Source: Sporodiniella umbellata (Eukaryota; Mucoromycota; Mucoromycetes; Mucorales; Rhizopodaceae). From it: 64,000 nt of DNA. The number at the start of each line of letters is the position of its first letter. Within the stretch, counting starts at the first letter, position 1. Location: NCBI GenBank assembly GCA_025677835.1, contig JAIXMR010000027.1, forward strand, positions 124,001-188,000, given 5' to 3'. A model generated the notes under the pieces. That model saw only the letters and a list, made by a program, of their open reading frames with translations. It was not told the origin of the DNA and did no database searches. Positions 14,384 through 42,000 of the stretch are shown here, piece by piece. The translations under genes were made by a program, and so were the position numbers.

Positions 14384-17300
14384 CTACTGAAAAAGCGGAT
14401 GACTGAGTGCATCGTTTGCAGAGATACGCTCAGTATCTATTAGTTTCAAACACTGGCTCATAAGATCTAATGCCAGCAGATAATCTTTTTTTGGCCATCT
14501 GTTTATATTTTTTTCATTAAATTCTCTACATAGACTATCAAAGTCTGTTTGCTTTTCAAGTCTGCTTTCAATGTTGGTTTTTATATTGCGGCCTACAAAA
14601 GCGTTAACATATACACCTTTTTCGAGATCAAGACTTACCGTAAAACTTTCCAAATTTGCATACTTCTTCTGTTCCGAACAAGGACATCAACTCCAAGATA
14701 CCATCGGCGACATCATCTGGCTTGAAGAAAGGAAAAATGCCGGTTAAAAAGCTAATCATAATGACACCGACAGCCCAAATATCCATTGCTATTGTAAAGT
14801 GAGTACTCCTTTTTTGTTATAGCTGACATATTACCGGTAGTTTGTCGTGGTGAATTTAAGTAAATTTCAGGTGCTCTATATGCTTTTGTTCCTGAGCGGT
14901 CTACTTGAATTGGTGTGCTATAGGTAAAAATTAAGCCACCTCTTTTTTTTTTTCTGAAGTCCTTTGTTTCTTAGCTAGCATTACCGTCGATCATGTTTGA
15001 AATAGCCGTGAGGTTCGCCCTCATAGCTTCTATATGGAGACTTGGCGGTTTTCTGTTTATCTTTTTGTAGAACGATGTCTTCGTTTATAAATCTCTGCGA
15101 AAGAGAAGAGTTTTCTGTTATGACTTTATGCTTTTTACGGCTTTTGTGAACCATATGCTACTTACTTGTGCTAATCCAAAGTCACCAATATAACCTTGCT
15201 TTGTTTTGTTATCATATAGGAAGTTTGCAGGTTTAATATCTCGATGAATGATTCCTTTTGAGTGTATATGCTTTAAGCCAGTCAAAAGCTGATACACATA
15301 GCACTTGAAGTCTTTAAAAGACATCTTTTCATACATATCCTAAAAACAAATATAAAATAAGAAGTTTAATCGCGGTTCAGTGCAATTACCTCAAGCGGCT
15401 CATGTTCTACTATGGGGAAGACAAGTAAAGTTACATCATCTTTTCTTAGAGCGTTGAATAGGGAGATTATTGAAGGTTTGCCACTAAAAAAAAAAAAGAA
15501 ATGTAAGTACAACTGGTTTTAAAAAGAAATTCCTAATTTCATACTCTAATGCTCGGAGGCAAGATATCTCATTGGCTATTCTCTGAGGCGAGCTTATACC
15601 ATGGATCATTTTAATAGCCACAATAGTCCGCAGGTTTGGACCAAGTGAATCATAAGCTTTATATACCTTGCTAAAGGTTCCTAATAAAGTCTTAGTAACA
15701 AAGAAAAAAAGCAAGTAGTCAACCTTTGCCTATTCTATCAAGTAAGCGGTAGCGCTTTTTCAGTTCGGGAAAGTCTCTGATAATACGGTCAATTTCTTTC
15801 TGAACTGATAAACTACATGGCTTTGTTGTTTTGCTATCGTTACTCAAACCTTCCGGTGTTTGAGCAAGAGGATCAGCTGGAAAATCCAGCTTTTCAGTAT
15901 TGGAAAGGCCGGCTATCTGGCTATCAAAGGAGTCCGTTCTTTTAGTAGCCGTAGGAGATTCAGTGATCAGAACAACAGGAGATGATTTGACCGCTTCATT
16001 ATAACTAGAGAGTTCTATTGATTTGGGTTCATCAGGATGATCTGTCAAATCTGTAGTGCTAACAAAATCATTCATTTGAGGGATAGACGACGATTTGGGG
16101 TTTTGTTGAGTTGAAAAGAAACAACCAAGCTCAGTAACATTGACAGAGTCATCTAATCCTGGAACAGGTGAGTCGAAGATATCAATATCGCCAAAGGGCC
16201 CATTTTCTTGAGAAGCAAGAAAAGATTTGTTTAAATTGCTAGAGCTAGCAGGGTCTTCCTCTTGAAGGCTGACAGACGGTTTGGTTAGCCTAGTATTATT
16301 GGATAGTTCCACTGCTTGTTGAGGAAAAAGAGGTAAGGGTGGCTGAACTTTCTCAGTAATGTTGGGTAATTCAGCAATCTCTTCATTGAAAGGAAGAGAT
16401 TTCCTATCTTTAAAGCTTTTTGTGTATGGTCCTACGTTTTGATCCAAAAATCTAGGCTCAAGGCTAACAACCTTTCTTAAAGCAGACTCTTCATGCTTGC
16501 GTTTTATAGCACTAGGAACCTTTTTTTGGACTCTAGAGGTGTTAGCCATAAGTTTATGGCTTCTGGAGTTTATATTCAGCTTTGGAGTAGAAATTTCTGG
16601 AGGAAAAAAGCCAGCTGGCTCAGTGGTGTTGACAGAATTCTTTGTTTGAGGGGTATCACAAAAGAGCCCACTTTCTTGGGGAGCACGAGAATATTTGTTC
16701 AGATTATTAAAATCATCAAATTTTTCCTCTTGAAGGCTGACAGACGGTTTGGTTAGCCTAGTATTATTGGATAGTTCCACTGCTTGTTGAGGAAAAAGAG
16801 GTAAGGGTGGCTGAACTTTCTCAGTAATGTTGGGTAATTCAGCAATCTCTTCATTGAAAGGAAGAGATTTCCTATCTTTAAAGCTTTTTGTGTATGGTCC
16901 TACGTTTTGATCCAAAAATCTAGGCTCAAGGCTAACAACCTTTCTTAAAGCAGACTCTTCATGCTTGCGTTTTATAGCACTAGGAACCTTTTTTTGGACT
17001 CTAGAGGTGTTAGCCATAAGTTTATGGCTTCTGGAGTTTATATTCAGCTTTGGAGTAGAAATTTCTGGAGGAAAAAAGCCAGCTGGCTCAGTGGTGTTGA
17101 CAGAATTCTTTGTTTGAGGGGTATCACAAAAGAGCCCACTTTCTTGGGGAGCACGAGAATATTTGTTCAGATTATTAAAATCATCAAATTTTTCCTCTTG
17201 AAGGCTGACAGACGGTTTGGTTAGCCTAGTATTATTGGATAGTTCCACTGCTTGTTGAGGAAAAAGAGGTAAGGGTGGCTGAACTTTCTCAGTAATGTTG

Positions 17301-18421
17301 GGTAATTCAGCAATCTCTTCATTGAAAGGAAGAGATTTCCTATCTTTAAAGCTTTTTGTGTATGGTCCTACGTTTTGATCCAAAAATCTAGGCTCAAGGC
17401 TAACAACCTTTCTTAAAGCAGACTCTTCATGCTTGCGTTTTATAGCACTAGGAACCTTTTTTTGGACTCTAGAGGTGTTAGCCATAAGTTTATGACTTCT
17501 AGAGCTCACTATTGGTTTTTCAGTAGTGACTTCGTTCATTGTACAGTCTCGATTCTCTGTAGTAATACAATAATAAACAAAGAGTAAGTGTTTTGGGTTT
17601 GAACAGTTTTTGCAAGTCTATACTCTCAATCTAGTCCGTGCGCAGATTGTATTTTTTAAACACCATCGCCCACCCTTATGAGTAAAATAAAACAGAGATA
17701 TATTACCTGGTAACAAGAAGGCATATTGGTCGTCTGAAAAGCCTTCAAAAGACAGAGGGTCGTTGTTTTCTTTTCCAACAAATTGGTCTTGAGTAGTGAA
17801 AGAATTGTACATAGAGTTTACCAATTCTTGAGTGTTGAATTCCGTTTGAAAAGAATTTTGATTTGATACACTAAATTTAGGGAATCCAGAATTTTCGTTT
17901 TGTGTGTATCGATCCGTATTTTGAGCTGTTCCTAAAGGCATTGCTTGTGGAAGCAAATTAGGATTTGTGTTATAAGGAAGGCTATAGCCGTCGGAGGGTG
18001 AATGTGGTGGTATAATAGTAGCAGCAGCAGGTTGCAGCCAGTTGGGTTCACTAAGTTCATGAGGATAACCAGACATTTGGAAATTGTTTGTTTGAGATAA
18101 GAAAGAGCTTTGGTATTGGTTTTGAAGTTGGCTCTGACCCTGGCTCTGACAGTGATCAACATTTGCGGCGTTCGCATTCGTAAATTGCCCAAAAGGATGT
18201 AAGTGATGTAACCACAGGTTTCTTGATATATCAGAAGTTTCGCTTTCTGTAATAAAAGTATAAGGCTCTTCATTGCCCAAGTGGGAGCCAACTATAGGTT
18301 GCACTGTGGGATTAGCTTCAGACAAGACATGAGCAGATGACTGATCATCAAAGGGGTGGAACAAAAAGTTATCAGAGGGTAACTCTTGTGTGCTAAAAAA
18401 AGAGTGAGGTATAAAATTCAT
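14384..18421 (-). CDS. CDC7: CDC7-like (Dbf4-dependent) protein kinase with giant N-terminal extension
   Basis: Nine exons: 18421-17707, 17556-15724, 15680-15545, 15483-15390, 15339-15166, 15094-14985, 14917-14835, 14788-14639 and 14592-14384, giving 1167 residues. The kinase domain starts near residue 845: [21 protein letters not shown] (glycine loop), VAIKMI (lysine), [21 protein letters not shown], then [13 protein letters not shown] and [10 protein letters not shown]. The [11 protein letters not shown] signature and the APE context point to Cdc7, which phosphorylates Mcm2-7 to fire replication origins. The extension of about 840 residues is Gln/Asn/Ser-rich; yeast Cdc7 totals 507 residues. 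It contains a 156-residue unit repeated 2.65 times, in the same ORF as the glycine loop, so the fusion is not an assembly guess. Exon 1 joins exon 2 in phase 1. Confidence 0.85.
16256..17499 (-). repeat. 468-bp tandem repeat in CDC7 exon 2 (2.65 copies)
   Basis: Sequence from 16256 recurs at 16724 and again at 17192, a constant 468-bp (156-codon) step. The array ends near 17499. The translated copies look identical over their shared length, including [19 protein letters not shown] and KPSVSLQEE. Because 468 is a multiple of three the reading frame is preserved. Two complete linker segments and three copies of the main block are present. Near-perfect identity implies recent expansion or ongoing homogenisation. 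Confidence 0.95.
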
Positions 18422-18821
18422 ATTATTGTTTCAAGCGTCAAGCTCAGGTGTTTTGGAACAATTATTTTTCAATATGGAAAAGAAAAAAGTGTACTCCTCT
18501 TTTTTTGTTGTTCCTAAAGCTTCTGACGGAGTCTCAAAAATGGCGTCTTGGAAAAAGTGTTTTAGTTACGCGACATTGTGCACTATTTTCCCATTTTAAG
18601 CTAAAGATTACTTAAAAAATTAAGAATTCAAGCAAATGTACATAAAAATGTTGTGCGAAGCGCGTTTTATGAAAAAAAATTCGTAGTATTACAAAACAAA
18701 AATAAAACAAAGCAAACCAAAAAAAACTAGGCGACTAAAAAATAAAAAGCAGAAAAGCATAAAAAAAAATCGTATGCTTAGATCAGATATTCACAGTGCA
18801 CAAGTATCAAAGCAGGGTTTC
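18422..18821. other. CDC7 upstream region
   Basis: AT-rich leader and promoter area of CDC7 with several poly-A stretches. No ORF or clear TATA motif could be assigned. It ends at the left edge of the 832-bp duplicated block. Confidence 0.4.
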
Positions 18822-19653
18822 TTAAAATAGAAGTGCGCAAGCTGTTTGCTTCTCAAATAGATTTAATTAGGTATTTCATTTCGAGTGATCGTTTCAGGGC
18901 CTGGTCCCTTTTATTTCTGTGTTTTAATCTTATAGCATTGCACAAATGCGCGTTCAAGTATCGATCGTAGCCATAGTATCTTTGACTTCCTTTCCTCAGC
19001 GTTTTAGGAAAAAAAACCCTTAGAATAGACTGCCCCTTACCTGTAGTTGTATGTTTCGATAAACCTGTACTGTTTTACAGCCACATGCTAGTCCCATTAC
19101 CCACAAGCCAGCTAGCGGGCTTATAACCTTTGTTTTAAGCTAATTTTATCCCAGAGTGCTGAAGTATAATTTTTTCTCTCAACCAAAAAGTCACTACATG
19201 TCTAGGATTATCCGGTTTTGTGAGGCCGATGCTCACCAAGTTGCAAAAAAGGAGTAAGTCAACGTAATTGAGTCAGAAAACGATACAAAAGCTCGAATTA
19301 AGCCAAGTGTATGGATTAAATAAAAAAGAAACTAGGCTGACTATGAATAAAATAGAGAAACAAATACCTGTCCAGATACTGAAAGAATATGATCTACAGA
19401 GCAGTTGACATATAAAGCCGAAGCTAAGTTGTTGAAATTTTTAGCCGTCTGATGCAAAAAAAAACCGGTATAATAGTATTGTTATCCAACAAAAAAAAAA
19501 CCACATATCCGGTAACAGCGATATTAGAGCGTTTTTTTAGTTTATAAAAACCATGAAAGCGCAAAATAATAAACACCTTGCTTTTAGCTTTTAGCCTATC
19601 TTACAAATTAAATGCGCTGTTATTAAAACAAACAATGACTACTAAAACTGAAG
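18822..19653. repeat. 832-bp duplicated block, copy 1
   Basis: This segment is repeated in direct orientation at 28540-29371 (constant offset 9718). Reading both copies side by side I find differences only in the terminal bases. It contains no long ORF. No terminal inverted repeats, TG...CA ends or target-site duplications are evident, which argues against a solo LTR or MITE. The copy lies between CDC7 and a decayed PNG1 copy. Confidence 0.95.
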
Positions 19654-19734
19654 AAAAACAATTGATCTCTACTATTAATCGATAATTTTTTGCCAAAAGT
19701 AAAACTAAGAAAAAGCGAGAGAATTCTTTTCTTT

Positions 19735-20400
19735 TCTTTTTTAAACGAATGTCACTCTATGTAGTATCACTCAAAACTCAATTTCTCTTTGAGCTCAGTG
19801 TTGCAGCAACATATCCTTAGTGTAGGCGGAAGGTAAAAAATGGCAGTATTTGAGTATAAAAGCACCTTCCAGTTAGTAAACAATAAAAAATGTTCTATAA
19901 GAATAGAAAAAATACACACTAAGTATAATTTCTAGAGACTTTGCAAAAAAAAACCCACAGCTAATATTTTCTTAAAGTTAAGCAATAGCTACATTTGTTT
20001 AACGTTGACACGTTTTAATAACCGCACTGCTGTTACTTAAGTAGTGCATTCGTTATCTTTTTTATCTGTTTTTGTTTTAGAAATCGAGTCTCTGTACTTG
20101 TAACACGTATACATAAAAAAAATATTTTATTGATTTGTTCCATCTATATTAGAGGAACAGATCTGGCTTAAAATGTTGTGCATATTTGCCCTGCTCTAAA
20201 AGACTAGCTTTATCGATACAGACAAGAAAAACAAAATGGAGAGAAAATATTTATGATAAGTGGATCAAGCTATCTTAAAAGTTTTTGGTAATTTTTCCCA
20301 CTATTTATATCTGAACAACAGAAAAAAACAGCAATACTAAAAAAATTGCTGGAAACAAAGAGATCACTGCGAAAAGTGGCCAGTACAAAAAAAAAAAGAT
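19735..20400 (+). pseudogene. Decayed copy of the PNG1 5' half
   Basis: Stretches align in order with PNG1 exons 1-4 at 29485-30173. GTAGTATCACTCA near 19760 matches the start of exon 1. AATACACACTAAGTATAAT near 19910 matches the start of exon 2. AGAGGAACA near 20152 and GCCCTGCTCTAAAA near 20189 match exon 3. GAAACAAAGAG followed by AGTGGCC near 20354-20380 matches exon 4. Many substitutions, stops and lost splice sites exclude function. It begins less than 100 bp after copy 1 of the 832-bp block, as the intact gene does after copy 2. Similarity fades after the poly-A run near 20390. Confidence 0.75.
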
Positions 20401-20681
20401 GGACTTATTCTTCTTTCCTCTTTAATCTAACGTGGCCGGATGTACGGTGAGAATAATTATTGGGTTAGTAAACTCAATGAATTCTTTATTCATATAAATC
20501 CCTTCGCTTAAGTGTATTTGAAATGCAGTATTTTATTCATAGATAGTAGATGAGTGAAATAGCAATAAAGAGGGGCAAAGGAAAGGCGTAAGCCGTTTTG
20601 TTTTTTCAAATGCTTAAGCGCTTAGAAACACTACCTAGTTATATATATATATAAACAAGGGTAAAATAACTACTGATATTT

Positions 20682-21911
20682 TCAAGCTTGGTCTTTAGTA
20701 CCTTTTTTTGTTTCCTCTAGTTCCGTTACTTTGCTTAACAAACGATCACGTACTTGGTGTGCCTCAAAAAGCTTTGCTTTGAGCTGATCTACAACTTCAC
20801 TAACACTACCTATCTTTTCCTTCATTGACTTTATTTCTTTTTCATGATCAGCGATAGATCTTTCTGCGAGCTAATACGAAAAGGAAGTTATACATAAATA
20901 CCAATCAGCGTGTCAATAGTGTACTTACATCTAGTTTTGAAGTAAGTTCATTTTGTTTGGACTCAGCATCCTTAAACTTGTTAGACGATCTTTCAATATT
21001 TTCCTAGCAATCAGCAAATGCGTGAGAACACAGTAAAAAATAAACCAGAAAAAGAGATTATTTTTTTTTGGTTTTTCTCACCTTTAGTTTGTCGTTTTCA
21101 ATACTTATTTTTTCCAATTCAGACTGAGCTAGGTCGAGTCTTCTTTTGTTGTCGCTTACTTCAATTTCCTTAGTCGCAAGCCGTCGAGAGTAGTTCAAAT
21201 TGTTGTCTTCTAGTCTTTGGTATTCTATTCGCTGTTGTGCGTGGAGCTCCTCAATATTGTTTATGTGCTGTCGCTCCAAGCTCTGTAGAATATAAGAAAT
21301 AAGTTACTAAAGCTACTGATAGCAGAAATAGCAAATAAATATCACAAAATCTACTACATACTTGAAGGTCTGTTCTTAATTCTTTGACTTGTTCTAAAAC
21401 TGCTTTTTCCTGAGATTCTTTATCCTCTTTAATAATTTCCAACTCTGTTTTGAAACCTCGCAGCTCACTCACTTTTTTTTTAAAAAAGATATTAGCTACT
21501 TCTCTATTTTTTTTTTTTTCTTACGAGTCTTCAAACTTAATTTGTACATTTCAGTGATGTCTGACACTTTTCCCTAATTTAGTAGTAAGGTAAGTACCAA
21601 ATCATTTTCATTAATCAGAAAAAAAAAGCAACACAATTTACTCTTAGATCCCATGCCGGCCTTTGTTTTAAACTACTTGATGCTGTATGGTAAGACTTTG
21701 CTAAAGTAGGTGGTGGATCGGCTGTCTGTTTTTTTCGTAAAGGCTTTGTCGGATTTGTTGCTGTTTTTGTGGTTTTTTGGGCACTTCGAATGGCATTTGC
21801 TCGAGCTTGAGAGGCTTTTGTGTTGGTAATAGGGAGACGGCGAACTTTTTTGATTTCTGTACGCTCAGAAGAAACTGAAGCTACGCGTTTTTTGGGTAAA
21901 TTGTCAACCAT
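20682..21911 (-). CDS. Kinesin-14-like tail/stalk protein lacking a motor domain
   Basis: Six exons: 21911-21642, 21573-21525, 21471-21362, 21282-21082, 21003-20929 and 20870-20682, giving 297 residues with all phases closing. The N-terminus is basic and Ser/Thr-rich. It is followed by KQRPAWDLRGKVSDITEMY, which resembles the RPAWD(x)KG motif I recall just before the stalk of fungal kinesin-14 (KlpA/Kar3-type) proteins. The rest is a continuous coiled coil of about 200 residues ending at a TGA after TELEETKKGTKDQA. In kinesin-14 the motor (neck, then IRVFCRVRP) should start at about this point, but none is visible down to the neighbouring PNG1 relic. It may be a truncated kinesin-14 or a separate spindle coiled-coil protein. 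It is intact as an ORF, so it could make a motor-less protein. Confidence 0.6.
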
Positions 21912-23401
21912 GTTGTGTATTCAAAATGTTAAGAATAAAGAAAATTAAATAAAACTGTGCTTTGACTTCGTTCTTTTTTTTTTTTTTTTGAAAACATGCT
22001 GATCTTCAATTTTTTGTAGGCAGCATACAAGTTGCAATAATTACTGATGTAAGCCAAAGTAGAGTGGTTACAAAGTAGCTGACCATTATGACTAAAGACA
22101 GTTTGTAGAATCAAACAAGCTCAACAGCGTTATCTTGGAGCTGTGGTTTTTTTCTCATATACTTTTAAGCATCGTATCATCTTAACGAAACACCGTAAAA
22201 GCCGCTTTAAACAAATGTTGCTTTTGACAAATAAATTAAAACGCCAGATTGACGCGAGGCTTTTTCTTTCGTACAAAAAACCCAGAAAAATCATTTATTA
22301 TCTGAATCTCAGGTAGTTTTTTGTTTTACTTTGCTTGATTCTAAAGCAGTTTTTTTAATATAGTATATGTGTAATGTAATGCTTCATTGTTGAGCGCACA
22401 ATTAAAAAACTAAAAACAACACATGGATATTGAATAGAAAAGCGAAAAAAACAGTAATATTTTTTATGCATAATGGTTTATAACCCACATTTCAAAGTTT
22501 ATACGGTTCTTAGACAGTCTAATACCTGTTTATTACACACTTTGAAGCATTCAGCTTTTTTGCCTCCCGATTTCTAATCTCAAGCTCAGCCTCACAGGCT
22601 AGTTTTGTGCTAAAGATCATATTAAGACGAACGGAGATGTTATTAGGGGACTTGGAAAAAATAACTAGAGATGTATTGTTTGCAACAATTACAAGCCAAG
22701 GCAGTAAGTGATTAAAAATAAAACAATAGTTAGTTTTATTTAAGATAAGGGTAGAGCGAATTAGAAAAGATATGAAAGAAACGAGTTTATTAAATGGAGC
22801 CCATAGCAGACTCCTAAACTGTTCATTTCGAAGCAGTAGTTGGGGTAAAACATCTAATAAATGTTGGAACTATATGACACACTTTCTTAAAAGTAAACGA
22901 TGATGTCGCGTTTGTCACTTATCAACAATTCTATCGGTACTGTGTATATTGGAAAGAGTACAAAAGACATTTCTGAGCAGATACAAAACAGCAGAAAAGC
23001 ATAACAGTTCTACCAAGTTCCTGGTAGACGGTTCCTTAACTTCAATATGCGTACTCTCAATAATACATGATCATTACAATTGTTTACTGTATTTTAATTT
23101 AGCTTCGTAAATCAACTATAAAAGTGTATGAATATCAAATTGGTCACCAAAGAAACACATTCTAATTTTGAGAGTCTCAAGAGCTTTTACATTATCTTTC
23201 TTATTTCTTTTTGAAAACTAAAACATCACGTACAGCCTTTTTAATCTTTTTAAAAAAAAAGTACCGTCTCAACAATTTTTTTGTGTTTTTCTGTCTAGCG
23301 TTTGTTTAAAACTTGTGGGAGCACTTCCTTTTCAGCTTTCTCCCATTAAGCTGCTGCTTGATTTAGGTGGAGTACCTGGTATCGTTGCAGATGTTACTTC
23401 T
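21912..23401. other. Gene desert with coding-like scraps
   Basis: AT-rich. A short minus-strand open segment at about 22520-22620 follows a good acceptor and reads KLACEAELEIRNREAKKLN. Another minus-strand scrap near 23340-23420 reads FEEVTSATIPGTPPKSSSS. These look like remains of coding sequence, but no family is evident and no continuous model can be made. Confidence 0.35.
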
Positions 23402-23600
23402 TCAAAAGTTGTTCTCATTCTCAATAGTAAGGTTAACACAGTAGTAGGCGTTGTCTGAATTTAATATTTGCAATACATCAGAAATTGCCAGCCTTTCCAA
23501 CGTACAAATGCCACATATGAAACAATCTACTGCCTCTTTATTTTCAACAGTACTCATTACTTGTAGTTCATTTTGAAGATCTGACTCAAACTCAATACAA
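23402..23600 (-). pseudogene. Orphan coding-like fragment, 66 codons
   Basis: A stop-free minus-strand frame reads CIEFESDLQNELQVMSTVEN and continues with DCFICGICTLERLAISDV and a TGA at 23404-23402. Composition and a CxxC pair suggest a real former exon. The flanking sequence (22.5-23.4 kb) holds other scraps in different frames, so this is probably a decayed gene. No family recognised. Confidence 0.3.
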
Positions 23601-23739
23601 GCTTATCTCACTGAAATAAAAAAGGAGATATATTTAACCTACTTCCGTATCCAAATATTTTTAAAAGCAAAGTGAAATACCCTAACTGGCTTTGTTTATT
23701 GTACTATTCAAATCTTTAATATCGCTAAACCGCAATTGT

Positions 23740-24480
23740 CTTGACTTTTTTTTTCAACGCTGCCCAAAGTTGCTCAATTAGGCTGAGTTTAGGTGAAAAT
23801 TCGGAAAGATGCATACCTCTATATCTCCTCATTTTAACCACTTAAATATGGGAGCAAAAACAGAGGTACTATTTGCGAAGATATAAAAGTAGTTATTGTG
23901 GGTAGCTTGTATATTTCTTTAAATAAACCGAAAACAAATCGCTCGTAATAGTCAGTAGTCATCTTCTTAGCAGGTTTCTTTTGAGTCGTTCCTTATTTTT
24001 TTCTTTTAATACTAATATCAGTTTTTTTTGTATATTTGAGGAGCTCTCTTGTGACAACACATTTGCTTGGGTAAGTTTTTTTTTGTTTTAAGAGCAAAAC
24101 CAATCCCGTAGCAACGCTCATTTCGAATACCAGCGGCATTTTTATGGATTTGTTGAAGAGTGTTTATTTTGGTAGTCGAGCTACATTTGTGTAGAATAAA
24201 ATCAACAACAGATTTTTTTTAACTGAGTTCTTTATAAGTCTCAATCAACCTGAAAACTACATCATTTTTGGTTGCCTGAGCGTTCCCTTCAAAAAGCTCA
24301 AAAAGTTCTATGCGCACTTTTCTTGTAATTCGTTTTCCTTATAATTAACTTTGTTGGCTTCTTTTTTCCTAATTACTCCTATTTGTATTTTTCTTTGGTT
24401 TCCCCCAATCTTACGCACTACGCGTGTTAATCTATCGCTTAATCCCAGCATGGAAAGCTTTTGATAATCTTATTTTGTTG
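23740..24480 (-). mobile_element. Relic of a Tc1/mariner-type transposase
   Basis: On the minus strand, about 23910-23745 reads in pieces NNYFYIFANSTSVFAPIFKW, then HLSEFSPKLSLIEQLWAALK and KKVKT. This resembles the DDE-domain C-terminus of Tc1/mariner transposases (MDNA..., then LPxYSPxLNPIExxW). Frameshifts and stops break the frame. Upstream fragments such as TRVVRKIGG near 24410 may belong to it. No terminal inverted repeats could be identified, so the limits are approximate. It is inactive. Confidence 0.6.
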
Positions 24481-25353
24481 AAATAATGTAAAAATGCTCT
24501 TTGCTTTTTCTGGTTATATGATATACTGTCTTATTTTTATATATTTTCTCGACTATCTCTTTTGCTTTATCAAATAACTATGAAAGAATCTTTTCTAATG
24601 GCTTTTGAAGTTTCTAATACTGATTTGACTTCATTAAAAACACACTGCTGAAAGCAACAAAGTATCCCTTCCAATCCATCACCAATAAAAAAACGCGCTT
24701 TTTTTCAACAGAAAAACAATGATGTGGCGTTTGCTCAAATGCAATAAAAATAAAGTTATTAGCTGCATGTAATCTTTTTTCTAGAAAAAAAATGCAAGAT
24801 GTAAAACGATCAACTGGATTTTCTTCATAGCTACTACAACAATACATTAGATTTCCTTTGCTTACATATATGCTTTTATTCAAACTTATCGTAGAGTTGC
24901 ACAGCCTCTTTTTCAAAGAAAAATTACCAAAAGAGTTATGTTCTCCGTATGGTACAACTATCTAAGCAATTCATCTGAAACTGTCTTTTGTAGCGACCTT
25001 TAACGAAAAGAAGACTTTGAAGATTTTGGGGTGACACATTAAGCTCAGCTAAAGTCAGCCAAACATTGACCAAATCCAAAAATAAAAGAGAAAAATAGAG
25101 CCACTGCGCGCTATCTCACTATTCTTTTTGTTTTGTTTTGTTTTTAAAGTATAAACAAAGAAGTTTTAGGGATTTAGGGTTTGGATCTGAGCAATGTTTA
25201 TTTTTGTTGCCTCAAAACGTCATTGTTGCTTCAGGTCAAACTTACAGAATTTCCAATTTTGAGTCTTGTGACTCGGGCTTTGAGTATAGGTGTAACCCGA
25301 AGCCAGAGATCTCAAAGTCCTCAGCCTTACATTTGATCTGATTGATCGGTATA
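24481..25353. other. Intergenic, no supported gene
   Basis: AT-rich sequence. Two ORFs, 24614-24916 (minus) and 25138-25341 (plus), show no domain or codon pattern I can recognise and are not called. Confidence 0.4.
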
Positions 25354-25361
25354 TATATAAA
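25354..25361 (+). promoter_or_regulatory. Probable TATA box of the M13 peptidase gene
   Basis: TATATAAA lies 84 bp upstream of the ATG at 25438, within an otherwise ordinary leader. Confidence 0.4.
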
Positions 25362-25437
25362 GAGCATCATGAGAGCGGTACTTTTTCTTTTATCTTTATT
25401 TTATATTTTTATAAGACAACGCGCTATTAATTAAAAT

Positions 25438-27953
25438 ATGCCTGGGGGTGTTCTTCAATACTTAGCTAATCAAAATCATTTGCTGAGCCGTGCACCTAGT
25501 GTTTGTTCTACTCAAGCATGTCAAACAGCTGCAAGATCTGTTTTGGATTCTATAGACTTCAATATAGATCCATGTGATGACTTCTATCAATACACCTGCG
25601 GTGCTTGGATCAACCATACATCTATACCAGACCCTTTTCCAGGTATTTACTTTTTATTTTCGAGGATATCATTACACGTATAAAGTACATCAGAGATATA
25701 CTAATATAACTACAGCCATTGGTACTTTAATTAATGTATCAATTGCAAACGTTGAGGTACTTAAAGCAGTAATGTCAGGTTCATATGAAGATTTGCTGGC
25801 ATCTTACGATAACAGCTCTGGTATGCTTGATAATGCCCAGATAAACGAAGATAAGGCAAACTTTCAGAAAATGAAAACTCTATATAGCTCATGTATCAAC
25901 CAAGAAGAAGTAAACAAACTTGGTCCTACACCTGTATATCCTTATGTATCTAAGCTCCTTTCCTTGGCCACTAATGGAAGCTATTTCAATCTTAATTCTA
26001 CCAATGTAATGACAGAGTCCCTAATTAATGTATTACAGCATGGCGTTGATAGCTTAGTAAATTTGGCTGTGTCGATAGACGATAAAGAATCTGACAAGCA
26101 CACACTTACCCTCTTCCAGTCAGAGTTGACTTTGACTGCCGACAAATACAAATCTGGTTCACCTGCTGTCAGACAATTTCGACAAGGGTTAGGCCCAATA
26201 CTTTCAAGATTTTTAGGCAACGGCACAAGCCAAGAACCTAATCCATATCTTCAACAACTACAAGGAAACCATATCAAACCTCTTGGTTCCAGCGAAATCG
26301 AGTCCATGGTTAACAGATTTATTGAGTTTGAGTTCAAAGTTGCTAATATTACAATTGACGAGTACGTACAGCTTTTATTTATTCATTTATCTCATATATT
26401 AATTTTTTTTAAAAGTGACGATTTGGAAGAACCCAAAAAAACAACTTTGTCCGAACTTGATCAACAATACCCTATTGCAAACTGGACGCAGATCGCTCAA
26501 TACTTTGGACCTCAGAACATTTCTGGGTCCGATAGAGTAGATGTGCAGGCACCACCTTTTATGGAACGTCTCACTAGCTGGCTTATGAGCGGAGAAGTCC
26601 CTCTTCAGACACTTCAAGAATATTTTTCCATCAAGATGATTTTGTCAGATATTCCTCAGCTTGATCAAACAACCAGGGTTTTGTACAATACCACAATTGC
26701 AAACGTTACTGGAGGAACGCTTACTAATTCCTCTCGAGAAAATTTCTGTGTCGGAGAAACGCGGTCGTATTTTGGACAATTATCGGGCCGCTATTTTGTA
26801 ATGAAGGCTTTCGGTGGTGAACCACAGCGAACAAAAACTTCTCACCTAATAGACGATATTCTATCTACTTGGATTGGCCGCTTAAAAAACAACACATGGT
26901 TAGATGAAGAGACTCTGGGTCGTGCCATCGAAAAAGTATTTGCGAAAAAACTATATGCATAAAAAGACTAATCTCTATAAATTGTAGGCGCAACATATTA
27001 CATCTCAGTTGGCATATAGCATCGGAAGTCTAGATATACGTTCTCCCGTATCCTTATCCAATTATTACTCTACTTTTCAAGTCAAGGAGAACGATTATTA
27101 CGGCAATACGCAATCTGTCTATAATTCCAAATACAGACAGCAGTGGGACAGACTTGGAAAGAAGCCAAACAAAGATAACTGGGATGGTTTGTCAGAGCCT
27201 AGTGAGCTTAATGCCTTTTATGTCCCAATCTTTAATGAAGTGAGTCTAACACCTATTAAAAGAAACATATTTTCTAATTCAATCTTTGCAAAATTTGAAA
27301 TAGATTATCGTCCCTGCTGGAATTCTTCAATACCCTCTTTTCCATGCTGAACTCCCTGAGTACTTTACCTATGGTGGTATTGGAAGTATAATTGGCCATG
27401 AAATCTCCGTAAGTATACACTCATACTTTTGAATATTATTCAAATCTAATGTCTGGGTTAGCATGCTTTTGATAACAACGGTCGCCTTTATGATAGCAAT
27501 GGATTCAAAGCAAATTGGTGGACAAATAAGAGTTCAGAGGCTTTTGAAGAAAAGGCTGAGTGTTTTGTTAATCAATACAGTAACTCTACTGCACAGAAGT
27601 TTGGCAATGAAACACTTCATGTTGATGGCCTTCAAACTTTGGGCGAAAATCTGTCAGATAATGGCGGTATAAGAGCCGCTTATCAAGCACTCTTTTCAAA
27701 AAATAGAGAACAGGCTGCTTTGCCTGGATTAGAGAAATTTTCTGCAGAACAAATGTTTTTTATTAGTAATGCCAGAACTTGGTGTTCAAAATCAACAACT
27801 GCATTTGCCATAAATCAACTCGAAACAGACGAGCACTCACCCGATAAATGGAGAGTAAATTTGGTAATGCAAAACTTTGAGAAGTTTTCTGAAGCTTTTC
27901 AATGTCAATCGGGGCGTCTTATGAATCCTATCAAAAAATGTAACATGTGGTAA
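25438..27953 (+). CDS. M13-family zinc metallopeptidase (neprilysin/ECE-like)
   Basis: Six exons: 25438-25642, 25716-26361, 26416-26935, 26988-27239, 27304-27408 and 27462-27953, giving 739 residues. The family N-terminus is present (CQTAARSVLDSIDFNIDPC, DDFYQYTCGAWI). The zinc motif HEISH lies at about residues 573-577 and is split by intron 5, and GENLSDNGG supplies the third zinc ligand near residue 638. The chain ends in a CxW (CNMW), as is usual for M13. The enzymes cleave extracellular peptides and the many N-glycosylation sequons agree with a secretory location. No signal peptide or anchor follows this ATG. An in-frame hydrophobic ORF begins at 25369 but meets a TAA at 25432, six bases before the ATG. 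Intron 2 is 54 nt and could be read through. Confidence 0.88.
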
Positions 27954-28539
27954 ACAATTAAGCCTACATATTTAACTGTAAAATAAAAACACCTTAAAAC
28001 AATAAATACTTTAAAAAGAACACAGCTGTTCTCTCTTTCTTTTTATCTTGTTCACATTAACATATATCAACTACAGCGTTAATTATAGTTTTTTCATGCT
28101 AATTATCAGTGATGTCAGTAAACATTTCTGAACTCAAACAACCAGACTACTCTGTAGTATTTCAGTACTCTTATTTTAAGTTGAATGTGTGTGCAGCGCG
28201 GTCCCCTAAAAAAAATAGGACTGAATAGTCTATGATGTGTATACTTTAAAATATAAAAACCAACGCGAAAAAACTTTGGAAACAATTTTGTTGAAACAAA
28301 AGGAAGAGCCACTATTGCTACCAAATCGACACCATTGAGTTTATTGCCCCCGAAGAAAGCTTACTAGTGCCTTTTTTTAGAGCCCCATACCTAGACTCAA
28401 TAACCTATCCATTATATTGTCATTTATGGATTGTATTCAGTATCAGAAATAAAGTTTGAAGAGCATTTTTTATCTTTTGGTAGAACAGTGTCTTCGCTTA
28501 TAAATCTCTACGAAAACAAAAAGCTTTAAATGGAGCCCT
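27954..28539. other. Intergenic spacer
   Basis: 3' flank of the peptidase gene and AT-rich sequence. Apart from a short CDC7-like fragment near 28470-28516 (listed separately), nothing is recognised. Confidence 0.4.
28470..28516 (-). pseudogene. Fragment resembling CDC7 exon 6
   Basis: About 41 of 47 bases match 15057-15103, the start of CDC7 exon 6 with its acceptor (shared GTAGAAC, TGTCTTCG and TTATAAATCTCT). It ends about 24 bp before copy 2 of the 832-bp block and has the same orientation relative to that block as CDC7 has to copy 1. This suggests that a CDC7 copy once stood here and was deleted. Confidence 0.6.
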
Positions 28540-29371
28540 TTAAGATAGAAGTGCGCAAGCTGTTTGCTTCTCAAATAGATTTAATTAGGTATTTCATTTC
28601 GAGTGATCGTTTCAGGGCCTGGTCCCTTTTATTTCTGTGTTTTAATCTTATAGCATTGCACAAATGCGCGTTCAAGTATCGATCGTAGCCATAGTATCTT
28701 TGACTTCCTTTCCTCAGCGTTTTAGGAAAAAAAACCCTTAGAATAGACTGCCCCTTACCTGTAGTTGTATGTTTCGATAAACCTGTACTGTTTTACAGCC
28801 ACATGCTAGTCCCATTACCCACAAGCCAGCTAGCGGGCTTATAACCTTTGTTTTAAGCTAATTTTATCCCAGAGTGCTGAAGTATAATTTTTTCTCTCAA
28901 CCAAAAAGTCACTACATGTCTAGGATTATCCGGTTTTGTGAGGCCGATGCTCACCAAGTTGCAAAAAAGGAGTAAGTCAACGTAATTGAGTCAGAAAACG
29001 ATACAAAAGCTCGAATTAAGCCAAGTGTATGGATTAAATAAAAAAGAAACTAGGCTGACTATGAATAAAATAGAGAAACAAATACCTGTCCAGATACTGA
29101 AAGAATATGATCTACAGAGCAGTTGACATATAAAGCCGAAGCTAAGTTGTTGAAATTTTTAGCCGTCTGATGCAAAAAAAAACCGGTATAATAGTATTGT
29201 TATCCAACAAAAAAAAAACCACATATCCGGTAACAGCGATATTAGAGCGTTTTTTTAGTTTATAAAAACCATGAAAGCGCAAAATAATAAACACCTTGCT
29301 TTTAGCTTTTAGCCTATCTTACAAATTAAATGCGCTGTTATTAAAACAAACAATGATTACTAAAACCGAAG
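28540..29371. repeat. 832-bp duplicated block, copy 2
   Basis: Direct repeat of 18822-19653. It ends 113 bp before the PNG1 start codon, so it probably includes the PNG1 promoter. Apart from three or four bases at the ends I see no difference between the copies. Confidence 0.95.
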
Positions 29372-29484
29372 TCAGCCCCGGTTAAGAATCAACATGTTTT
29401 ACAACAGTTGAAAAATGTACTGTAAATAAAAAAGTGTATCAAAATACTTTTTCGTTTTCTGTTTATTTTAATTTAATTTTTCAA

Positions 29485-30172
29485 ATGGATGATATTATCT
29501 ATAGTATCACTCAGCAATTCCTTTCTTCGCTGAAAACCCGCACCCAGTATCGAAATAAAAGATTCTTAGAACGAGTGGAAAGCCAAGGGAAGACAGTCTT
29601 TAAATATGAAGATCCCTCTTTGTTGGTAAATATTATTGATAACAAACAGCAATAAACGTGCAAACAAACAACAAACGGAAAAACAGGAATACACACTGGA
29701 TATAATACCTTTACAAACGTTTTATGAGGAAGCCAGCCCCGAACCTTCTCTTGACGACAATGTTGTTAAACAATTACTAAAATGGTTCAAGAATGACTTC
29801 TTTACATGGGTTAACAACCCACCTTGTGAATATTGTATTCAGGTGAGTCCACTATTTTCTTTTTTGTTTTGAAAGTTGGGTCTTTATACTTTGCATTACA
29901 ATACATGTAGGGAGAAACGAAATTTCATTCAGTTGTCCCACCTACATCAGAGGAGCAAAGACATGCTGCTTTTACGGTGGAATGCTATGTGTGTTTGGCC
30001 TGCTCTAAAAAAACTCGGTTTCCTCGATACAAGTAAACAAAGAGATAATTTTTAGGCCATATGGCTCAAATGTTTTTAACGCATACATATATACACAAAT
30101 ACTTGAAAAAAAAAACAGTGATCCAAAAAAGCTGTTAGAAACAAAGAGAGGTCGCTGTGGAGAGTGGGCCAA

Positions 30173-30206
<34 letters not shown>

Positions 30207-31642
30207 CAACACAACATACTAAAAGTTTACAGTGTTTTACACTTTGTTGTAGAGCAATTGGAGCAGAGGCTCGGCTTGTACATGATTCGACTGATCATGT
30301 GTGGACTGAAGTCTATTCTGAATTTGAACAAAGATGGATACACTGCGATTCGTGCGAAGAGGCTTGGGACAAAGTACGTTTTTATTCGGGCAAACGTTAG
30401 TTTTTTAACTGCTCGCTTAAATTTAGCCTTTGCTCTATAGTCTGGGCTGGAACAAAAAGTTGAGTTATTGTATAGCTTACTCAAATATAGAAGCGATAGA
30501 TGTCACAAAAAGATATGTACAGGACTGGAACGAGGTTTTGAAAAGACGTGACCAGATAAGTGAGAGAGAGCTCGATTTAGTAAGCGAAAAAAAGGGGGTA
30601 ATGGTATTGCAGATATTTACAAACAAAAAGTTTTTAGACGATTTGACAAATAAATACCAGAAACTATTCAGTTATGAAAAAAAAAGAGAAATCAATCGAA
30701 AAAGAATTAAAGAGTTGATTGAACTTCAAGAGTCATGTCAAAAGAGAATGGTAAAAAACGGTGAACTTCTTGGAAGACAAAGTGGTAAAAGGCATAAAGT
30801 AATCTGTAAAACAGATGAAACTGAAAAACAATACTTAAACAAGGATCCACTAAATGGCGATCTATGCGCGGCGAGTTAGGAACTTCTGTGAATACAGGTA
30901 ATATACAATATAAAGACAAACCTATTGAAGTTTTATGTTAAAAGAATCGCAATCATTGGGTGTGTTCAATTTGCTCGGCTCCAGTACACAAACAAACAAA
31001 AATATCGTTCGTTTAACAGAAAGTAAAATATCGCAAGTCGGAGCTGTTTATCACCCACAGTCTATAAATTTTCACGACGTCAAGGGTGTCGAAATAGAGT
31101 TCGCTATACGAATCACAGGTCAAGGAGCGGATGGTATGGCATTCGTTGTCCAGGCATCACATAAAGACGCTTTAGGGGAAGGAGGGTGTGAGCTGGGGTA
31201 TGGCGGTATAAAGAATAGCATAGCAGTCGAGTTTGACACTTATCAAAGGTACTTTTTTTTTATTGGAAATTTGTGGACTAATATCCATATTTTAAGTTTG
31301 GATAGATGTACAGATCCTTCGTCCAATCATATTAGCATCCACGCCCGACAGCCACCTTACCCTAATTCTGCTCATCATGACTATTCATTAGCCTGTAATA
31401 GCCTGATACCAACTTTGGCTTCTGGAAAGTGGATAGAAGTAAAAGTACAGATGGATAAGGAACATATACAAGTTGGCTTGCTACAAAACAATCAATATAC
31501 TTCAATTTTGAACGTGGAGCTTGATGTAATGAGCTATCTTAATAACTCCAAAGAGGCATGGGTAGGCTTTACTGCTAGTACTGGAGGGTTAGCGCAAACG
31601 CACGAGATTCAATGGAACCAACTGATTGTTCATTATAAATAA
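29485..31642 (+). CDS. PNG1: Cytosolic peptide:N-glycanase fused to a C-terminal L-type lectin domain
   Basis: Nine exons: 29485-29625, 29687-29842, 29911-30032, 30119-30173, 30233-30373, 30427-30784, 30844-30897, 30945-31248 and 31297-31642, giving 558 residues. The N-terminal 340 residues are a PNGase/transglutaminase core: [18 protein letters not shown], two CxxC zinc pairs (CEYC, CLAC), RGRCGEWAN with the nucleophile Cys153, DHVW with His180 and IHCDSCE with Asp197. The 27- and 17-residue spacings equal those of yeast Png1. The enzyme removes N-glycans from misfolded glycoproteins in ER-associated degradation. From about residue 345 an L-type lectin fold follows ([31 protein letters not shown]) with the usual Ca/Mn ligands visible. 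Animal NGLY1 has a glycan-binding PAW domain at this end; the lectin may do the same job (inference). Confidence 0.9.
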
Positions 31643-39063: not shown

Positions 39064-42000
39064 ATGCAAGACGATACACGTATAGATTTACTCAGTTTAC
39101 TGGGTTCGTCTTCGTCGGCACCCACAGAAGATAACATTACTTATCTCCTGCAAAGTCGATTTAAACGTAATCAGCCCTACACCCGGCTGGGGCATTCTAC
39201 TTTGATTGTCGTCAACCCCTATCAACCTTTGGAAATCCTGAACGATGTGACATTAAATACCTACGCAGATATTGGCTATAGAAACATTGCAGAAAACAAA
39301 ATATTTATGCAGCCTCATGTATACGACCTTGCTGCCCGAGTCTACTTTCATATGCGAAGAACAGGAGAAGATCAGAGCATTATATTAAGGTAAGCAATCA
39401 CAGGTCGGGGTTGTTGAGAAGAACCCGGAAAGTTAAATTATTTTTATTTGGAAAGTCATTAAAATTTTTATTTTTATTTTTTTCAAAAGTGGCATTACCG
39501 GCTCTGGTAAGAGTACGACCCGCACACATCTGCTCAACCAATTACTGCTATTATCCACCCACTCCAAGAAAGAAAACAAGCTTGGTTTGCAGATCAAAAA
39601 TGCGCAGGTGATCCTAGAGGCCTTTGGTCATGCGAAAACAACACAGAACAACTCAGCCTCCAAGTTTGGGTCATTCCAAGAACTTCAATTTTCTGAAAGA
39701 GGACGCATTCTGGGCATAAAGACATTAACCTATGCATTTGACAAGTCACGTATGACAGAGATACCCAAGGATGAACGTACATTCAATGTCTTTTATTCTC
39801 TTTTGGCTGGTACGAGCGTGGATGAACAGACGGCGCTGCACATCAATTTCGCTCCCGACTCATTTCATTATCTTTCTCAATCCAAAATTATTCGACAGCC
39901 TGAGGACGAGATGGCCTTTGGGGAGCTCAAGAGCGCACTCAAAGTGTTTGGGTTCAAAGCCAAGCAAGTAACACAGATATTTCAACTTCTTTCCACCATT
40001 CTGCATATCGGCAACATCCAGTTCCAAAACGACGGCGACTCGCTACAACAGGAGGCCTGTGTGGTCCGCAACAGAGAAACGCTAGAGGTGGTTGCTGTCA
40101 TGCTGGGTGTCTCGCCTTCCAAACTGGAGCAATCTCTGACATACAAACTAAGGCTGATTCGCAAAGAACTCTGTACCATGTTTCTGGACACACAAGGGGC
40201 AGCCGAACAGAGAGATGCGTTGGCTAGAGCCCTGTACCATGTGCTCTTCTTATGGATTGTGGAGTCGGTGAATAACAAGCTGTGTTACAGTACTGAGCCC
40301 GCGAACTTTGTGGGCATTCTGGACCAATTTGGGTTTCAGAATTTCAAATCAAATGGGTTTGAAGTGTTCTGTGCCAACTTTGCCAACGAACGGGTACATC
40401 AGTTTATGGTAGATCAGCGATTCAACACACAAGATGGGCTGAATGCACTTATGCTTAGAGACGGAGTGCCTTTACCTTTGATTAGCACCGTCGATAACTC
40501 AGCGTGTCTTGAACTGTTAGTGGGCAACGAAAGAGAGCATAACAACACCCGTGGCAAGAGCAAGTCCTCTGCTGCCCTGGGTTTGACAGGTATCGTGGGT
40601 ATCCTGGACCGTGACTGTGCCAAATATCAAACAGGAGCCACGGATGCTACTAACGCCAACTTTTTGAGCAATCTCCAGCGCACACACGGCACGCATGGCT
40701 CGTTTTCCAAGTCTGCCCATGCCTACTCATTTGGCATCAACCATTTCTCGGGTACAGTTCATTACACTGTTGACTCATTCCTGGAAAAGAATCTGGACGA
40801 TCTCTCGCCCGATTTTGTCAGTCTTTTGCGCGACAATAGCACCAATACATTCGTTTCTAATCTGTTTGAGAGCACAGCCATGGCTACCGAATCCCACCCC
40901 AAGGATGACCGAACGATTGTCAAAGCCCAGCTGTCTTCGAAACCGATGCGAGCACCGAGTATGAAGAAGCCCAACAAACGCCGTGACGAGGATGAAGATC
41001 CTAGTAAACAAAAAGCGATCCGCGACGCTGAAGACGCTTACCAGAACATGCAAGTGACGACCGTCATGGACCAGATCTATATGACCATGCGTGACCTGTT
41101 TTATTCCATGGCTGAGACCCGCATCTACCAGATTATCCATCTCCGGCCCAACGATACCCAGACACCCGACAGTTTTGACCTTAAACGCATCAAGGCTCAA
41201 ATCCGTGCCTTCCTCCTGCCCGATCTCACCTTACGTGCCTCGGTCGAGTACGCCAACTACTTGACCTTTAACGAATTCCTTGTGCGTTACGAACGTCTGG
41301 TCGGCTCTCTCCAGATCGATCCTTCTAAACCCGAACGCGATCAGGTTCAGGACGTGCGAGCTATCATGAACTGGGCTGAGCCTCAAGCCTGTTTAGGTCA
41401 TGAAATGATCTGGCTGGCTTACGATACCTGGAAAGACCTTGAAGACGGCCTTCGTGCAGCCGAAAAAGAACTTAGAGAACGCGCCAAAGAAGTCAAACAA
41501 CCCCTGGATTCTCCCTCAATGGCTGGCTACTATCAAGAAAATCAAGACCGTCTGTTACCTCATATGACTTATGCCGATCCTATGGGCTTTGAAGACGGGG
41601 CTAGTTATGCAGATAGCGAAGACGGTCTCAAACGTGATATGGAAGGAAGTCAATGGGGCGAAGAATCAGAATGGGGGGGCATGAAGATTGCTGAAGGGTA
41701 AAGTATTCTTTATATATGTATATTTAGAGTGGCTGTACTCAACTGAAAATCTAGTTTTGGACCCAACATGGATATGAGTAAAATGGTGGAAGATTATCAG
41801 CCACCGCAATACGAGTCTGTGGAAGAAGTGCCTATTACACGCCTTCGTATCTGGTGGGTTCGTTTTGTTTGGCTGATGACCTGGTGGATTCCTACACCCT
41901 TCTTACGGTGGTTTGGCAAGATGAAGCGTGAGGATGTCCAGATGGCTTGGCGAGAGAAAGTGACGCTCTGTATTATTATCCTGTTATTCTCTGGGTTGAT

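What the first reader, a model, noticed from the sequence alone, without database searches (positions are those of the whole stretch)
18822..30173. Duplicated CDC7-spacer-PNG1 segment with complementary decay
Seen directly: an 832-bp non-coding block occurs twice in direct orientation (18822-19653 and 28540-29371, offset 9718) with essentially no internal differences. Copy 1 has an intact CDC7 gene on its left and a decayed PNG1 copy on its right. Copy 2 has a short CDC7-like fragment on its left and intact PNG1 on its right. Inference: an old segmental duplication in which each copy lost the opposite gene, with the spacer later homogenised or kept under constraint. The paradox is that non-coding DNA is identical while the neighbouring coding copy is heavily decayed.
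Basis: partly seen in the sequence, partly recalled or inferred. Interest (0 to 1): 0.75.

Follow-up and report, generated by a model that had tools for sequence, protein, structure and literature searches.

The report
Homogenised spacer between reciprocally lost genes
In the fungus Sporodiniella umbellata an old duplication of two neighbouring genes has decayed so that each copy kept a different gene, while the stretch between them is identical in both copies, most likely because one copy was recently overwritten by the other; it is a clean example of a known kind of event.

Summary
The window is from Sporodiniella umbellata (Mucorales, Rhizopodaceae). The 832-bp block occurs twice with 3 differences; its core, 18827-19638, is 812 bp without a difference. 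Copy 1 lies between an intact CDC7-family kinase gene and the decayed 5' half of PNG1 (72% over 637 sites). Copy 2 lies between a 59-bp relic of an internal CDC7 exon and intact PNG1. Best explanation: old duplication, reciprocal gene loss, then recent non-reciprocal overwriting of one spacer by the other (interlocus gene conversion or a like copy-paste repair). Constraint is unlikely, because each copy also keeps letter-perfect the part of the spacer that faces its dead gene. Not shown: direction, number of events, exact mechanism. Against a textbook conversion: the right flank is only 72% identical, below the 80% usually needed. An assembly error cannot be excluded without reads. The CDC7 here looks like a fast-evolving paralog, and CDC7-PNG1 adjacency may be peculiar to this lineage. 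Known kind of event, modest interest.

The parts
14384..18421 (-). CDC7-family protein kinase gene, intact frame over introns; start codon at 18421 is the longest reading, 17539 is possible
   Evidence: exons joined; best solved relative is Cdc7, 7p5z_1, E 6.9e-34; 100% to P0141 of S. umbellata over 92% of the typed query
16186..17504 (-). 156-codon (468-bp) unit repeated about 2.7 times inside the CDC7 N-terminal part, 93-97% alike
18822..19653 (.). block copy 1, within the divergent intergenic region between CDC7 and the PNG1 relic
19724..20398 (+). decayed 5' half of PNG1
   Evidence: 72.2% of 637 sites, z 41.8; 35 gaps against PNG1, differences 53/160, 46/160, 53/161 at codon positions 1-3
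20682..21911 (-). gene for a coiled-coil protein conserved in Mucorales, no Pfam family above cut-off
   Evidence: P0121, 94%
25438..27953 (+). peptidase M13 (neprilysin-like) gene, between the two block copies
   Evidence: Pfam PF05649 E 1e-47 and PF01431 E 3.9e-44
28469..28527 (-). 59-bp relic of an internal CDC7 exon, 12 bp left of block copy 2
   Evidence: 83% to 15056-15114
28540..29371 (.). block copy 2, ends 114 bp before the PNG1 start codon (copy 1: 95 bp before the equivalent place)
29485..31642 (+). PNG1 (peptide:N-glycanase) gene; the L-type lectin ORF 30929-31642 is probably its 3' part, as in related fungi
   Evidence: 2f4m E 4e-58; P0001-P0003 carry both domains

Best explanation
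A segment holding a CDC7-family kinase gene and PNG1 head to head was duplicated long ago in the lineage of Sporodiniella. One copy lost PNG1 (5' half still visible), the other lost CDC7 (59 bp still visible), so the two together keep one working gene of each (shown by sequence; order of events inferred). The shared intergenic spacer was later overwritten in one copy by the other, non-reciprocally, by interlocus gene conversion or an equivalent repair that copies from a near template (inferred). The left edge of the tract is the end of homology, where copy 2 lacks 3.7 kb; the right edge falls about 100 bp before PNG1 (shown). Direction, and whether it was one late event or repeated homogenisation, is not resolved.
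For: 812 of 812 identical in the core (95% upper bound on divergence 0.37%) against 29.8% raw divergence (JC 0.38) in the adjoining PNG1/relic pair. Step-like edge: 50-bp bins hold 49-50 identical through 19621, then 33 of 42 and 30 of 50. A third copy on C51 shows what the same spacer looks like without homogenisation: 69.6% of 704 sites, z 27.5, beside a CDC7 relic at 71.0% of 1113 sites. The block sits at the same place relative to PNG1 in both copies (95 and 114 bp), which a random insertion would not give. The block does not code: its longest stop-to-stop frame is 73 codons, reached by 169 of 500 shuffles, and the frame is broken on C51.
Against: The right flank is 72% identical; a review says conversion mainly occurs above 80% identity, rarely below (PMC3924818, passages), so a single late event between copies already that diverged would be unusual. 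The stretch 19654-19748 against 29372-29484 does not align above chance (z 0.6), so right-hand homology next to the block is thin. 812 bp is longer than the mean tract of 200-500 bp quoted for yeast in the same passages. No reads and no second strain were available.
Confidence: 0.72

Rival explanations
1. Fresh copy-insertion: the block beside PNG1 (or beside CDC7) is not a converted old spacer but a new local copy placed by template switching in repair, with microhomology at its ends.
For: Left border of copy 2 has only a few matching bases. The same contig holds another recent local copy, a 1309-bp inverted pair 99.9% alike at C119:89680-90988 and 92493-93801, with no homology beyond its arms.
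Against: The block has the same position relative to PNG1 and its relic in both copies, and a CDC7 relic lies beside copy 2; an insertion would have to hit the equivalent place by chance.
Confidence: 0.1
2. Purifying selection on a shared divergent promoter has kept both blocks identical since the duplication.
For: Each block still lies before one working gene; the C51 copy, with no working CDC7, is free to decay.
Against: 0 of 812 differences, A-runs included, with no lapse towards the end that faces the dead gene in either copy; the adjoining CDC7 leader outside the block is 74.5% of 106 sites to C51, much like the block.
Confidence: 0.06
3. Assembly error: the 832-bp repeat was longer than the reads, and flanks were joined wrongly, for instance a true CDC7-block-PNG1 plus a separate segment.
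For: An exact repeat is where assemblers cross over; no reads or coverage were available.
Against: Three differences near the ends fix each copy to its own flank; both copies lie inside one 232-kb contig with unique flanks. Swapping the joins at two direct repeats would leave the 9.7-kb middle as a circle, for which nothing speaks.
Confidence: 0.09

Closest known systems
Interlocus (ectopic) gene conversion between duplicates, as reviewed in PMC3924818 and PMC3924837 (passages seen)
   Same: High-identity tract inside diverged duplicates, step edges, neighbouring copies on one chromosome.
   Different: The tract is intergenic, its flanks are below the usual identity, and the coding neighbours on either side were lost reciprocally.
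Reciprocal gene loss after duplication (recalled; the term was searched, listing only)
   Same: Each copy keeps the gene that the other lost.
   Different: Here the two losses flank one shared spacer, so that each surviving gene keeps its own copy of what was a common upstream region.
Primate colour-vision genes with low divergence in introns and a peak of divergence in exon 5 (PMC3924837, passage)
   Same: Non-coding DNA homogenised while nearby coding DNA differs.
   Different: There selection keeps two working genes apart; here the diverged neighbour is a dead copy.

Membership tests
Interlocus gene conversion | Paralogous copies that predate the identical tract | tested here: met
   PNG1 relic 72.2% of 637, CDC7 relic 83% of 59
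Interlocus gene conversion | Tract of near identity with abrupt change to diverged homologous flank | tested here: met
   50-bp bins; met on the right side; on the left homology simply ends
Interlocus gene conversion | Tract younger than the duplication by an outside copy | tested here: met
   C51 spacer 69.6% of 704
Interlocus gene conversion | Flank identity above about 80% | tested here: not met
   72%; the review calls this usual, not absolute
Interlocus gene conversion | Shared polymorphism or variation between strains | not testable with these tools
   one assembly only
Transposable element or LTR pair | Dispersed copies in unrelated contexts | tested here: not met
   2 copies plus one diverged copy, next to CDC7 or PNG1 sequence in all 3
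Ultraconserved regulatory element | Identity across species | not testable with these tools
   no DNA of relatives of this fungus was held (one search says no relatives here)
Structured RNA gene | Match to an Rfam family | tested here: not met
   0 matches at gathering scores in the window

The most novel reading that the evidence does not exclude
The spacer is a self-sustaining island: because conversion depends on local identity, it has stayed homogenised since the duplication while both flanks fell below the threshold and escaped. The locus then holds two interchangeable copies of one divergent promoter, each serving one gene, and recombination between them can delete the 9.7-kb middle and restore a single CDC7-spacer-PNG1 pair.
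Probability: 0.15. Interest if true: 0.55.

Novelty: new member of a known kind. Interest (0 to 1): 0.33.

Why it matters
It shows within 11 kb how a head-to-head gene pair can be split by duplication and reciprocal loss, and it gives a natural pair for asking how identity-dependent conversion keeps a non-coding tract alike next to decayed sequence. If the island reading were true, it would be a simple case in which the limit of homology needed for conversion could be read from sequence.

Tried and rejected
Protein-coding reading of the block: the 73-aa minus-strand frame has no PDB match up to E 1, is no longer than chance, and is broken on C51. Rfam: no match in the window; tRNA: none (bacterial code setting). 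Mobile element: rejected, see membership test. RIP-like mutation of the PNG1 relic: changes from PNG1 to the relic are 79 GC-to-AT and 59 AT-to-GC, ts/tv 1.13, no strong one-way bias. Kinesin reading of the coiled-coil gene, my first guess from memory: dropped. PNG1 relic on C51: not found (z 0.5); similarity of C51 to copy 1 right of the block is inconclusive (z 2.1). Large segmental or genome duplication between C51 and C119: the convincing homology is confined to window about 15.1-19.6 and 20.8-21.8 kb; the other rows are weak pieces carried by summed statistics and were set aside. A duplicate of the M13 interval elsewhere in the window: only weak matches, best E 7.6e-4 over 72 columns. The even codon-position divergence of the relic (33, 29, 33%) gave no date: equal values say no coding constraint on the relic, but a larger share at position 3 would have been expected if PNG1 itself had changed much. 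Papers: searches gave listings; none of the titles or abstract starts seen describes this locus. Passages were seen of PMC3924818 and PMC3924837 only.

Full report
Source. The window is bases 124001-188000 of contig C119 (232,372 bp) of an unnamed 25.9-Mb genome in 198 contigs. Two proteins named Sporodiniella umbellata, P0121 and P0141, come from a contig of exactly that length, and a third, P0147, from one of 187,884 bp, the length of C135. The window is therefore S. umbellata, Mucorales, Rhizopodaceae.

The block. 18822-19653 and 28540-29371 differ at 3 of 832 positions: 18826, 19639 and 19649. Between the first and second of these, 812 of 812 are identical, which puts the divergence below 0.37% at 95%. 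In the whole genome the search found these two and one weak match, on C51. In 50-bp bins the identity is 49-50 of 50 through 19621, 33 of 42 in the next bin, 30 of 50 in the one after, and 26-40 of 36-50 from there on.

Right flanks. Copy 2 is followed by PNG1, first codon at 29485, with frames that join over short introns; the best solved relatives are peptide:N-glycanases (2f4m, E 4e-58). The nearest listed relative is from Rhizopus stolonifer, 65%. Several listed Mucorales proteins, P0001 to P0003 among them, carry an L-type lectin domain behind the PNG1 part, so the lectin frame at 30929-31642 is probably the end of the same gene. Copy 1 is followed by a relic: 19724-20398 against 29463-30189 is 72.2% over 637 ungapped sites, z 41.8, with 35 gaps, and differences spread evenly over codon positions, 53/160, 46/160 and 53/161. 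Nothing of the 3' half is left there (z -0.8). The bases between block and gene, 19654-19748 and 29372-29484, do not align above chance (z 0.6), though they are of like length.

Left flanks. Copy 1 is preceded by a CDC7-family gene on the minus strand with an open frame over its introns and the best solved match to Cdc7 (7p5z_1, E 6.9e-34). The kinase motifs read by eye (VAIK, HRDIKP, DFG, APE; motif names recalled) are present. Copy 2 is preceded, 12 bp away, by 59 bp that match an internal exon of that gene at 83%. The copy 2 lineage thus lacks what corresponds to 15115-18821.

The third copy. On C51, minus strand, about 14.4-18.7 kb, lie in order a piece of the coiled-coil gene (window 20779-21762), CDC7 (15141-18494) and the spacer (18740-19612), in pieces of about 57-73% with gaps counted. 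The frames there are short, 85 codons at most in the stretch examined, so CDC7 is dead there. Over ungapped sites the spacer is 69.6% of 704 (z 27.5) and CDC7 71.0% of 1113 (z 138, 20 shuffles). No PNG1 sequence was found on that side (z 0.5). The order is permuted with respect to the window (coiled-coil before CDC7), as a tandem array or a circular intermediate would give; this is inference.

What follows. The PNG1 pair, the CDC7 pair and the spacer pair with C51 all stand near 70%, while the two window spacers stand at 100%. The simplest history is an old duplication, loss of PNG1 in one copy and CDC7 in the other, and a recent overwriting of one spacer by the other. The left edge is where copy 2 runs out of homology. 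Against constraint: in copy 1 the PNG1-side end, and in copy 2 the CDC7-side end, serve dead genes, yet are as perfect as the rest. The C51 copy does not decide this alone, since a relic is free to decay. Against a textbook conversion: the review consulted says that conversion mainly occurs above 80% identity, and that mean tracts in yeast are 200-500 bp (PMC3924818, passages). Either the event was a rare one between diverged copies, or the spacer was kept alike by repeated events while the flanks drifted out of reach. I cannot separate these.

Base rate. In about 275 kb of this genome that I held (C119 1-194000, most of C51, 20 kb of C135, 10 kb of C114) a self-comparison at 80% identity or more and 100 bp or more gave 5 rows: the block, two rows from the CDC7 internal repeat, a 1309-bp inverted pair at 99.9%, and one 106-bp match at 81%. 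Recent local copying is thus not unique to the block here; the inverted pair has no homology beyond its arms.

CDC7 and its neighbour. A tree of 15 proteins puts the C135 protein of S. umbellata with R. microsporus (support 94/94, just under the tool's mark) and the window protein on a branch of 1.04 against 0.34; only 3 of 12 inner branches are well supported. A third CDC7-like stretch is on C114. The window gene is thus probably a divergent paralog and need not be the essential CDC7. In R. stolonifer PNG1 (P0001) and the coiled-coil protein (P0125) are on contigs of equal length, 4,789,830 bp, while its CDC7 hits are on others.

Consequence. Recombination between the two direct copies would remove 9,718 bp and leave CDC7-spacer-PNG1, at the cost of the coiled-coil and M13 genes. 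This is a prediction, not an observation.

Literature. Seven searches listed no title or abstract start that describes this locus; the library is partial, and only passages of two reviews were looked at.

Noticed in passing
16186-17504: The CDC7-family gene carries a 156-residue unit about 2.7 times, 93-97% alike in DNA; the C51 relic aligns as a single unit.
   Followed up: partly
L038 and L039 (G000:C119:89680-90988 and 92493-93801): Inverted pair of 1309 bp, 99.9% identical, arms 1.5 kb apart, no homology beyond the arms; the first 321 bp occur only there in the genome search.
   Followed up: partly
L004 (G000:C51, about 14.4-18.7 kb): Relic of coiled-coil gene, CDC7 and spacer in an order that is permuted against the window, which hints at a tandem array or a circular intermediate.
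   Followed up: partly
20682-21911: Coiled-coil protein conserved in Mucorales without a Pfam family above cut-off; 20 database hits, 19 besides the fungus's own.
   Followed up: partly
29485-31642: Peptide:N-glycanase joined to an L-type lectin domain, seen in several Mucorales hits.
   Followed up: no
39752-44911: A myosin-head frame (39752-41701) directly before a class II-type chitin synthase frame with cytochrome b5 and DEK_C domains (41768-44911).
   Followed up: no
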